Shown here: positions 33,226 through 34,378 of the stretch, piece after piece
How the letters are laid out: each line of letters starts with the position of its first letter
How positions within the stretch are numbered: position 1 is the stretch's first letter
Source of the DNA: Clostridia bacterium
Lineage (GTDB): Bacteria; Bacillota; Clostridia; Christensenellales; Aristaeellaceae
Length of the DNA: 64,000 nt
Assembly: GCA_017460395.1 (NCBI GenBank)
Contig: JAFUBA010000203.1
Location: 1 to 64,000 of the forward strand
Direction of reading: 5' to 3'
The notes under the pieces: model-generated
The model's database searches: none
The model's input: the letters and a program-made list of their open reading frames with translations, nothing else
What the model was told of the DNA's origin: nothing
Translations under genes and position numbers: made by a program

Positions 33226-33276
33226 AACCCAGCGTCGCATCAGGCGGCGCTTTCTTTTTACCCTATTTGGAGGTGA
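33226..33276 (+). repeat. Left direct repeat (terminator plus ribosome binding site)
   Basis: About 50 bases beginning AACCCAGCG and ending GGAGGTGA. They contain a short hairpin (GCGTCGC...GGCGGCGC) and a T-rich tract. The first 32 bases match the copy at 34331 with two differences, and the ends match too. Together the copies bracket the 33.4-34.3 kb cassette. Confidence 0.75.
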
Positions 33277-33279
33277 CCC

Positions 33280-33399
33280 CTGATCTGCACCTATCCCGCT
33301 GACTGCACCGACTTCTCCGTGGGCGGCACTCTGGCTCCGCTGTCGGTGGAGGTCACGGAAATGCTGAACGGCAAATATGAACTGACACTGTTGTATTGA
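33280..33399 (+). pseudogene. Truncated prophage tail endopeptidase gene (N-terminus only)
   Basis: Directly after the GGAGGTGA site, 39 codons read ICTYPADCTDFSVGGTLAPL and continue to EMLNGKYELTL before a stop at 33397-33399. This matches my recollection of the N-terminus of the phage tail endopeptidase/minor structural proteins of siphoviruses in Clostridia, which begin with a short 'IYPADxTDF' strand and an ELNGxYELEL segment. The normal protein is several hundred residues or more. The expected ATG is a CTG here. It is a phage remnant, with no other tail gene nearby. Confidence 0.6.
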
Positions 33400-33439: not shown

Positions 33440-33468
33440 TTGACAAGAAAACTTGGCATGCTTATCAT
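33440..33468 (+). promoter_or_regulatory. Strong promoter of the three-gene cassette
   Basis: TTGACA at 33440-33445, a 17-base spacer and TATCAT at 33463-33468, 33 bases before the first start codon. It is flanked and overlapped by two matching operator sequences. Confidence 0.8.
33441..33458. promoter_or_regulatory. Operator 1 of the cassette promoter
   Basis: TGACAAGAAAACTTGGCA overlaps the -35 box. It matches operator 2 at 16 of 18 positions. The two start exactly 30 bases apart, about three helical turns, so they face the same side of DNA. The linked XRE-type protein is the obvious candidate to bind. Confidence 0.65.
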
Positions 33469-33470
33469 TA

Positions 33471-33488
33471 TGACAACAAAACTTGTCA
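33471..33488. promoter_or_regulatory. Operator 2 of the cassette promoter
   Basis: TGACAACAAAACTTGTCA has perfect 6-base arms (TGACAA/TTGTCA) around CAAAAC and lies just downstream of the -10 box, over the transcription start. Confidence 0.7.
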
Positions 33489-33500
33489 AGGAGGATTCCA

Positions 33501-33806
33501 ATGAACAAAGAAGAGATTCTGAAAAGAGCCCAGGTGGAGAATGAGGATGAAAGAGAGATTCAGGTAAAAGATAAGTCGATAACCTTTTCATACGTCGTAT
33601 TGGTCATCATGGCAACTGTTTTCACGTGCATTCGCGCAGAACAGGGGCTTCCGATGATGGATTTGTGTGCTACTGTCTGCGGTTCTGTATGTGCAGGTAT
33701 GGTATATCGATTTATGAAGACAAAGGGGAAAGCATATCTCCTGATCGCCGCAATTACTTTCATTGTGATGATCTTTGCAATTGTGCGGTTTGCTATGGGG
33801 CACTGA
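33501..33806 (+). CDS. Small two-helix membrane protein (DUF6442-like)
   Basis: A 101-residue protein. An acidic, charged N-terminus (MNKEEILKRAQVENEDERE) leads into three hydrophobic stretches, at about residues 28-43, 48-65 and 77-95, and a short tail. The N-terminal pattern resembles DUF6442 proteins, which are commonly encoded next to a small helix-turn-helix gene. ATG at 33501 follows AAGGAGG at 7 bases. It is the first gene of a compact three-gene unit whose base composition is more AT-rich than the flanks. Its role is unknown; a membrane sensor or partner of the repressor is conceivable. Confidence 0.8.
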   Translation: MNKEEILKRAQVENEDEREIQVKDKSITFSYVVLVIMATVFTCIRAEQGLPMMDLCATVCGSVCAGMVYRFMKTKGKAYLLIAAITFIVMIFAIVRFAMGH

Positions 33807-33809
33807 GTT

Positions 33810-34016
33810 ATGAATGATAAACTTCAGCTAAAGAACAGACTAAAGGAATATAGATCAGAATCAGGACTATCCCAAGCACAGCTTGCGGAGATGGTTGGCG
33901 TCTCGCGAAATACCATCAGTTCAATTGAAACAGGACAGTTCAATCCTACAGCGAAACTGGCGCTGATACTTTGCATCGCTTTGGACAGAAAATTTGAAGA
34001 ACTGTTTTATTTTTAA
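33810..34016 (+). CDS. XRE/Cro-type repressor (YozG-like)
   Basis: A 68-residue helix-turn-helix protein consisting of the DNA-binding domain alone. NRLKEYRSESGLSQAQLAEM and VGVSRNTISSIETGQ form the HTH, and the tail SAKLALILCIALDRKFEELF-type helix ends the domain. Small proteins of this kind often repress their own promoter. It starts three bases after the membrane protein stop, so the genes are co-transcribed. The paired operators at 33441 and 33471 are its probable targets. Its codon use and composition match the cassette, not the flanking chromosome. Confidence 0.92.
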   Translation: MNDKLQLKNRLKEYRSESGLSQAQLAEMVGVSRNTISSIETGQFNPTAKLALILCIALDRKFEELFYF

Positions 34017-34026
34017 GGAGGTTTCC

Positions 34027-34281
34027 ATGGATAAGCAAACAGAAGGAATTGTTGTGTCTGTAAAAAAACAATGGTGGTTAAAAATTAACTCGAAGCAACC
34101 AAGGACAGACCCGTTAGATGGCGCGACCTTCCCACACATAATCAAAGTCACGTATACGGTTGATGGCAACGATTATACCAAGTGGAAATGGGTGAATGCA
34201 GGTCTCCCGGCACCAAAGGTGGGAAATACGGTACAAGTTTTGTACAGTTCGGATAAACCGTCAAAGGCGAAAGTGATATAA
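34027..34281 (+). CDS. Small soluble protein of the HTH cassette (unknown function)
   Basis: An 84-residue protein, predicted mostly beta strand: TEGIVVSVKKQWWLKI, HIIKVTYTVDGNDYTKWKW and VLYSSDKPSKAKV. It resembles DUF3592-like or OB-type small barrels and, as I recall, relatives are often misnamed as sugar ABC permeases; it has no transmembrane segment. ATG at 34027 follows AAGGAGG at 6 bases, ten bases after the repressor stop. The same trio of small membrane protein, HTH and this protein recurs in Clostridia as I recall, but its function has not been described to my knowledge. Confidence 0.75.
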   Translation: MDKQTEGIVVSVKKQWWLKINSKQPRTDPLDGATFPHIIKVTYTVDGNDYTKWKWVNAGLPAPKVGNTVQVLYSSDKPSKAKVI

Positions 34282-34330: not shown

Positions 34331-34378
34331 AACCCAGCGCCGCATCATGCGGCGCTTTCTTTACCTTTCTGGAGGTGA
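34331..34378 (+). repeat. Right direct repeat (terminator plus ribosome binding site)
   Basis: Second copy of the repeat at 33226: AACCCAGCGCCGCATCATGC, then GGCGC and TTTCTTT, ending GGAGGTGA. Its hairpin GCGCCGC/GCGGCGC is perfect here. The binding site leads into no gene; after GGAGGTGA the sequence runs into the end of the dehydrogenase gene on the other strand. Confidence 0.75.

What the first reader, a model, noticed from the sequence alone, without database searches (positions are those of the whole stretch)
33440..33488. Paired 18-bp operators in phase around a near-consensus promoter
TTGACA-N17-TATCAT is flanked by TGACAAGAAAACTTGGCA and TGACAACAAAACTTGTCA, starting exactly 30 bases apart. 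One covers the -35 and the other the start site. This is the geometry of cooperative repression by a dimeric Cro-like protein, and the second gene of the operon encodes exactly such a small protein. It makes a compact self-regulated switch, possibly linked to the co-encoded membrane protein as sensor.
Basis: partly seen in the sequence, partly recalled or inferred. Interest (0 to 1): 0.58.

Follow-up and report, generated by a model that had tools for sequence, protein, structure and literature searches.

The report
Self-repressing phage-cargo membrane-protein switch
Two matching DNA sites around a strong promoter are a real, widely conserved switch by which a tiny repressor very probably controls itself and a small membrane protein, in a gene cassette that phages and other mobile DNA carry among gut bacteria.

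Summary
In detail: TGACAAGAAAACTTGGCA (33441-33458) and TGACAACAAAACTTGTCA (33471-33488) start 30 bp apart around TTGACA-N17-TATCAT. It is not chance: 93 of 98 cassettes with a close homologue of the 68-aa XRE protein carry the site upstream (2-10 of 98 loci in each of 10 shuffles). 47 of 98 carry three sites. In 85 of 88 loci the middle site contains an exact -35 TTGACA. When the recognition-helix residue Asn34 is Gln, the operator arm tends to change from CTTGGCA to CTTGACA. The XRE protein is therefore the likely reader, as an autorepressor. The 'in phase, cooperative' detail fails: spacings run from 30 to 36 bp. The first gene encodes a three-helix DUF6442 membrane protein whose N-terminus is conserved and whose transmembrane part diverges. 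XRE's best structural match is CylR2, half of the cytolysin CylR1/CylR2 pair. In phages the cassette sits between dit and tal as a moron (4 of 20 loci; 5 empty, 11 with other cargo). The window copy is a chromosomal relic with a tal stub beside it. Antagonism of XRE by the membrane protein is inferred, not shown. New variant of a known kind.

The parts
33440..33468 (+). promoter TTGACA-N17-TATCAT of the cassette
   Evidence: same architecture in 88 of 88 loci with a site pair
33441..33458 (+). operator over the -35 (O2 of the fuller array), TGACAAGAAAACTTGGCA
33471..33488 (+). operator just after the -10, over the inferred start site (O3), TGACAACAAAACTTGTCA
   Evidence: the start site itself is inferred
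33490..33494 (+). ribosome-binding site GGAGG of the first gene
   Evidence: read from the sequence
33501..33806 (+). DUF6442 membrane protein, 101 aa, three predicted helices, conserved N-terminus
   Evidence: PF20040 4e-16; AlphaFold model; conservation profile
33810..34016 (+). 68-aa XRE/Cro-like repressor, recognition helix SRNTISSIETGQF
   Evidence: HTH_3 9e-16; CylR2-like fold
34027..34281 (+). third gene, DUF3592 domain protein (variable third gene of the cassette)
   Evidence: PF12158 4.9e-8; 65% identical homologue in the same place in L012 and L013
34331..34378 (+). terminator plus tal-type ribosome-binding-site block that ends the cassette (right copy)
33226..33279 (+). second terminator plus ribosome-binding-site block (left copy) of the same dit-tal boundary
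33280..33399 (+). truncated N-terminus (39 codons) of a phage tal gene (prophage endopeptidase tail), then a stop

Best explanation
The operon is a portable, self-repressing cassette. A dimer of the 68-aa XRE protein binds the 18-bp palindromes (ideal TGCCAAGTNNACTTGGCA). The site over the -35 and the site over the start point block RNA polymerase, so XRE holds its own operon (DUF6442 membrane protein, XRE, and here a DUF3592 protein) at a low level. Diverse DUF6442 proteins keep one conserved cytoplasmic N-terminal helix. The most likely reason is that this helix meets XRE and, on a membrane signal, weakens its binding and turns the operon on, as proposed for CylR1/CylR2. The cassette travels as cargo on phages (between dit and tal), conjugative elements and plasmids; the window copy is a chromosomal relic of such cargo. 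Shown here by computation: sites, promoter geometry, conservation, covariation, linkage, phage context. Inferred: binding, repression, the membrane protein's action on XRE, the signal.
For: Sites in 93 of 98 homologous loci against 2-10 in shuffles. An exact TTGACA lies inside the middle site in 85 of 88 loci, with a -10 at 16-18 bp in 88 of 88 (254 of 1760 random positions). Arm position 3 is A in the middle site (87 of 88), where the -35 demands it, but more often C in the other two (39 of 46 and 52 of 88), so protein preference and promoter constraint can be told apart. Of XRE orthologues, 115 of 122 with Asn34 and 9 of 16 with Gln34 have sites, against 1 of 17 Gln34 paralogues; the main right-arm base is G in 100 of 115 Asn34 loci and A in 6 of 9 Gln34 loci. 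The recognition helix is identical in 94 of 96 sequences. XRE's best structure matches are CylR2 chains 2xiu and 1utx (Z 13.5 and 13.0, rmsd 0.7 over 63 residues). 75 of 75 partner proteins match PF20040. The N-terminal motif MNKEEILxKSRxENKxxD is conserved while the transmembrane part is not. In 12 isolate genomes, 8 of 13 exact sites lie in the cassette and 5 elsewhere, equal to the 5 of the reversed control pattern, so no wider regulon is seen.
Against: No binding, expression or interaction data. Three XRE orthologues have neither the sites nor a DUF6442 gene next to them (L053, L061, L102). Gln34 loci without sites are common (7 of 16) and two Gln34 loci keep CTTGGCA or a like arm (L160, L200). 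The Fisher test (6e-5) treats related sequences as independent. Nothing directly shows that DUF6442 touches XRE, and direct homology of DUF6442 to CylR1 was not tested.
Confidence: 0.62

Rival explanations
1. XRE is a plain homeostatic autorepressor that limits a membrane protein which is toxic in excess; the membrane protein does not act on XRE, and its own job is lysogenic conversion or superinfection exclusion.
For: Operators lie only on the cassette's own promoter; a moron position between dit and tal with its own promoter and terminator; varied transmembrane parts could match varied targets.
Against: The DUF6442 N-terminus is the most conserved part across otherwise diverged proteins, and one XRE serves two or three DUF6442-like genes in 8 of 98 loci; both fit a shared partner better.
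Confidence: 0.22
2. A type II-like toxin-antitoxin pair with the membrane protein as toxin and XRE as antitoxin and autoregulator, kept for stability of mobile elements.
For: Small autoregulated pair on phages, plasmids and integrative elements; a weak match of XRE to the Y4mF antitoxin model (44.9 bits, cut-off 71.65).
Against: No antitoxin model in the rows shown passes its cut-off; the XRE is wholly a DNA-binding domain with no extra antitoxin segment; orphan XRE and multi-membrane-gene operons occur.
Confidence: 0.1
3. A phage immunity (Cro or CI-like) switch for lytic growth.
For: Up to three tandem operators and a Cro-like fold.
Against: It sits among late tail genes in L015, L016, L019 and L020 or on chromosomes, has no divergent early promoter, and its sites do not recur beyond chance elsewhere in host genomes.
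Confidence: 0.03
4. Some other host factor, not XRE, reads the palindromes.
Against: The sites follow the XRE across classes and mobile elements, vanish next to paralogues (1 of 17) and shift with residue 34.
Confidence: 0.03

Closest known systems
CylR1/CylR2 of the Enterococcus faecalis cytolysin operon (and Bib1R1/R2 of bibacillin)
   Same: XRE has the CylR2 fold (Z 13.0-13.5, rmsd 0.7 over 63 residues, 36% identity) and is paired with a small predicted three-helix membrane protein; passages of PMC3709268 describe CylR1 as having three predicted transmembrane helices and being required for induction, with CylR2 the repressor.
   Different: CylR1/R2 genes are transcribed divergently from a lantibiotic operon that they control in response to a peptide; here the only visible target is the cassette's own promoter, and homology of DUF6442 to CylR1 was not tested. 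The bibacillin preprint (passages read) says the system had only been described for cytolysin and that its spread in other gene clusters was unexplored.
Phage lambda and 434 Cro with three-site operators
   Same: A small HTH fold (434 Cro 3cro Z 9.6) and up to three tandem operators over a promoter.
   Different: No divergent promoters, no CI partner, variable spacing, not a lytic switch.
Phage morons (lysogenic-conversion cargo)
   Same: Own promoter and terminator, inserted between two late tail genes in some phages and absent in near relatives.
   Different: It encodes its own autorepressor, and is also found on conjugative elements, plasmids and bare chromosome.
SdpR/SdpI of Bacillus subtilis (recalled, not looked up)
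   Same: A small membrane protein thought to control a co-encoded repressor.
   Different: SdpR is ArsR-like, not XRE; no sequence relation was tested.

Membership tests
DUF6442 (Pfam PF20040) | score above the curated cut-off of 25 bits | tested here: met
   59.6 bits, 4e-16 for the window protein; 75 of 75 partner proteins match at E <= 0.001
CylR2-type XRE regulators | single HTH domain of about 66 aa with CylR2 fold including terminal strands | tested here: met
CylR1/CylR2 system | membrane partner related to CylR1 by sequence | not tested
   the cytolysin locus was not fetched; only the three-helix topology was compared (PMC3709268 passages)
CylR1/CylR2 system | regulator genes divergent from, and controlling, a lantibiotic operon | tested here: not met
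   the sites lie only on the cassette's own promoter and the left neighbour is a tal stub on the same strand
CylR1/CylR2 system | induction by a peptide through the membrane partner | not testable with these tools
   needs an expression assay
lambda/434-type genetic switch | tandem operators controlling two divergent early promoters | tested here: not met
   one promoter only at the operators, 2-3 sites
phage moron | own promoter and terminator, extra relative to related phages at the same junction | tested here: met
   L274, L276, L282, L284 against empty junctions L279, L285, L286, L290, L291; the window copy itself is a relic outside an intact phage
type II toxin-antitoxin system | antitoxin model above cut-off with a toxin partner | tested here: not met
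   best antitoxin model 44.9 bits against a cut-off of 71.65; a fold search for the partner found nothing at E <= 0.001

The most novel reading that the evidence does not exclude
One near-invariant repressor and operator form a standard socket into which mobile elements plug many different three-helix membrane sensors through a shared N-terminal helix. The result would be a large unrecognised class of membrane-signal switches, CylR1/CylR2 being a distant relative, which report envelope events such as antimicrobial peptides or incoming phage and are traded between phage tail-gene hotspots, conjugative elements and chromosomes.
Probability: 0.25. Interest if true: 0.75.

Novelty: new variant of a known kind. 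Interest (0 to 1): 0.5.

Why it matters
DUF6442 has no known function and none of the 5.39 million held papers contains the name. A match of at least 63% identity to this XRE occurs in 32 of 391 sampled genomes of the class (counted from the rows). The conserved sites give a direct handle on it: a promoter fusion plus a gel shift would show what switches it on. If DUF6442 relieves repression on a membrane signal, the mechanism of CylR1/CylR2-type signalling, described in the passages read as not understood, becomes testable in a family with many natural variants. It also marks the dit-tal junction of gut and rumen siphophages as a cargo hotspot.

Tried and rejected
Chance palindromes: rejected. 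Fixed helical phase and cooperative geometry: rejected as a conserved feature. A genome-wide regulon: none seen in the window's genome (3 exact matches to a loose pattern, 2 of them the cassette) or in 12 isolates. Empty chromosomal site in relatives: not settled; 6 of 9 genomes of the genus (the window's own included) matched the upstream gene at DNA level, but the right-hand neighbour was not found next to it in the loci examined. A common chromosomal context: none; 632 flanking ORFs fall into 496 clusters, and the commonest Pfam family matches only 5 of 149 nearest-neighbour proteins (149 of 154 listed were aligned). Those 632 include ORFs from some loci that lie on the minus strand and were misplaced in that script. 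Defence context: PADLOC models hit at most 5 of 149 neighbours, mostly generic regulators. Fold match for DUF6442: none at E <= 0.001 in PDB or BFVD. Direct repeats as a mobile-element end: they proved to be phage terminator plus ribosome-site blocks. Papers on the motif or on small XRE plus membrane pairs: the listings showed nothing on this family; one search found no paper holding CylR1, homolog, membrane protein and XRE together. The viral scan with a Gln34 query mostly refound known loci and added no new Gln34 cassette; one search gave 3 partial matches only.

Limits: one search kept the best 80 of 510 confirmed loci; I used 17 of 25, leaving out L026-L033 (51% identity or less, or short partial matches). 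Covariation counts are not corrected for kinship. In one search rows with under 330 bases upstream were dropped. The site consensus used for scoring was taken from the loci themselves.

Full report
1. What is there. Behind them lie three genes on the plus strand: a 101-aa DUF6442 membrane protein at 33501-33806 (PF20040, 4e-16), a 68-aa XRE protein at 33810-34016 (HTH_3, 9e-16) and a DUF3592 protein at 34027-34281 (4.9e-8). A terminator-like hairpin follows at 34336-34356. The XRE start lies 3 bases after the membrane-protein stop.

2. Is it more than chance. Close homologues of the XRE protein were fetched from viral contigs and genome contigs. Of 98 loci (the window, 17 of the 25 viral loci, all 80 genome loci returned), 93 have at least one site scoring 12 or more of 16 to TGCCAAGTNNACTTGGCA within 1.5 kb upstream of XRE; 47 have three sites, 42 two, 4 one, 5 none. 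Shuffling the same upstream stretches ten times gave 2-12 sites in all, against 229 observed. The five without sites are L023 and L024, whose XRE is 64% identical with a changed recognition helix, and L053, L061 and L102, which lack a DUF6442 gene next to XRE.

3. Geometry. Where three sites exist, the first two are mostly 25-27 bp apart (all values 23-27, with one of 35 in L078) and the last two 30-36 bp. In 88 loci with the last pair, the middle site contains an exact TTGACA in 85 and a -10 with at least 4 of 6 matches lies at a 16-18 bp spacer in all 88 (77 at 17 bp; control 254 of 1760 random positions). The last site starts 2-8 bases after the -10. Position 3 of the arm is A in 87 of 88 middle sites, as TTGACA demands, but C in 39 of 46 first sites and 52 of 88 last sites; the scoring consensus has C there, which leans the latter counts. 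So one stretch serves as -35 and operator at once. Spacings of 30, 33, 34 and 35 bp are all common, so a fixed helical phase is not conserved. Steric blocking at two places is enough.

4. Who reads the sites. The recognition helix SRNTISSIETGQF is identical in 94 of 96 sequences of the set (L023 and L024 left out of that count). In the combined set (159 distinct loci; those with under 330 bases upstream dropped), sites occur in 115 of 122 Asn34 orthologues, 9 of 16 Gln34 orthologues, 0 of 1 other orthologue, 1 of 17 Gln34 paralogues and 0 of 2 other paralogues. The main base after CTTG in the right arm is G in 100, T in 13 and A in 2 of 115 Asn34 loci; A in 6, G in 2 and T in 1 of 9 Gln34 loci (Fisher 6e-5, not corrected for kinship). 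Exceptions include L160 and L200.

5. No wider regulon. In 12 named isolates a strict form of the site occurs at 13 places; by their coordinates 8 are in the cassette and 5 are not, and the reversed control pattern also occurs at 5. In the window's genome a looser pattern has three exact places, two of them the cassette.

6. The membrane partner. All 75 partner proteins aligned match PF20040. Conservation is concentrated in M-N-K-E-E-I-L-x-K-S-R-x-E-N-K-x-x-D, ahead of three hydrophobic stretches that vary freely. AlphaFold gives three helices, 3-48, 55-74 and 77-98 (mean pLDDT 89.3), so the conserved segment continues into the first membrane helix. A basic stretch between the second and third helices suggests, by the positive-inside rule, that the N-terminus is cytoplasmic (inference). 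Eight of 98 loci have two or three such genes before one XRE. No fold match reached E 0.001.

7. The repressor. The AlphaFold model (pLDDT 94.6) matches CylR2 best: 2xiu Z 13.5 and 1utx Z 13.0, rmsd 0.7 over 63 residues; Deinococcus dr_2454 (9k3w) is close at 12.6, tied with these. Sequence search agrees. In passages of PMC3709268, PMC12304293 and the preprint PMC11343131, CylR1 is a small putative membrane protein thought to alter DNA binding by CylR2, by an unknown mechanism. DUF6442-XRE therefore works like CylR1/CylR2, but I do not file it as a member: the divergent target operon is absent and CylR1 homology was not tested.

8. Where it travels. In L015, L016, L019 and L020 the cassette lies directly upstream of a prophage-endopeptidase-tail (tal) gene, with one small extra gene between in L015 and L016; in L020 the gene before it is a distal tail protein, Dit. 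Fetching relatives of the tal start gave 20 phage loci. A Dit match was found upstream in all 20 (partial in L278 and L287); the junction holds this cassette in 4 (the same four contigs), nothing but a few bases in 5 (L279, L285, L286, L290, L291) and other cargo in 11. Most cargo ends in a similar hairpin, a T-rich run and the tal ribosome site. The window has this end block twice: on the left followed by 39 codons of tal and a stop (33280-33399), on the right where the block ends the cassette and tal is missing. The window's genome has no other tal match. Of 9 genomes of the genus, only the window's has the XRE. Other carriers include a Clostridioides phage record, an Agathobacter plasmid record beside a replication initiation factor gene, a Vescimonas record near an rRNA-methyltransferase leader, a conjugative Carnobacterium plasmid and lactobacillar plasmids. 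Genome loci show ordinary, unrelated neighbours.

9. Mechanism and confidence. Autorepression by XRE through these sites: about 0.85. DUF6442 acting on XRE: about 0.5. The signal is unknown. The combined statement is given 0.62.

10. Verdict. It is a new variant of the small-XRE-plus-membrane-protein kind, notable for its near-invariant operator, its dual-use -35 and its life as mobile cargo.

Noticed in passing
L274-L293, between Dit and Tal genes: The dit-tal junction of this gut/rumen siphophage group is a cargo hotspot: 5 of 20 empty, 4 with the XRE cassette, 11 with other cargo (for example an ArsR-permease set, a sigma factor set and a MerR gene, named from reading the sequence, not from a search), most ending in a similar hairpin plus ribosome-site block.
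   Followed up: partly
L296, L297, L299 and window 33280-33399: Short N-terminal tal stubs (24-42 residues matched) lie on chromosomes of the window's genus; the one in L299 directly follows the same end block, and the one in L297 lies near a sigma-factor-like gene resembling the phage cargo of L287, as if cargo moves between phage and chromosome with a piece of tal attached.
   Followed up: partly
window 33226-33279 and 34331-34378: Two near-identical terminator plus ribosome-site blocks flank the cassette and were found nowhere else in the window's genome.
   Followed up: yes
L058, L063, L066, L073, L077, L078, L092, L105: Two or three DUF6442-like genes precede a single XRE under one operator array.
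   Followed up: partly
downstream of XRE in 34 of 98 loci: A variable third gene within about 45 bases by a simple scan (some may be chance ORFs): DUF3592 here and in L012/L013; a recurring 100-aa three-helix protein in L009, L050, L051, L053, L054, L059, L079, L088; DUF3784 annotated in L237.
   Followed up: partly
L053, L061, L102: XRE orthologues with the same recognition helix but no neighbouring DUF6442 gene or sites.
   Followed up: no
L241 upstream of XRE: A Lactococcus plasmid copy has three tandem altered sites about 21 bp apart (ACAAGTTTRCTTATA type) with a Gln34 helix.
   Followed up: no
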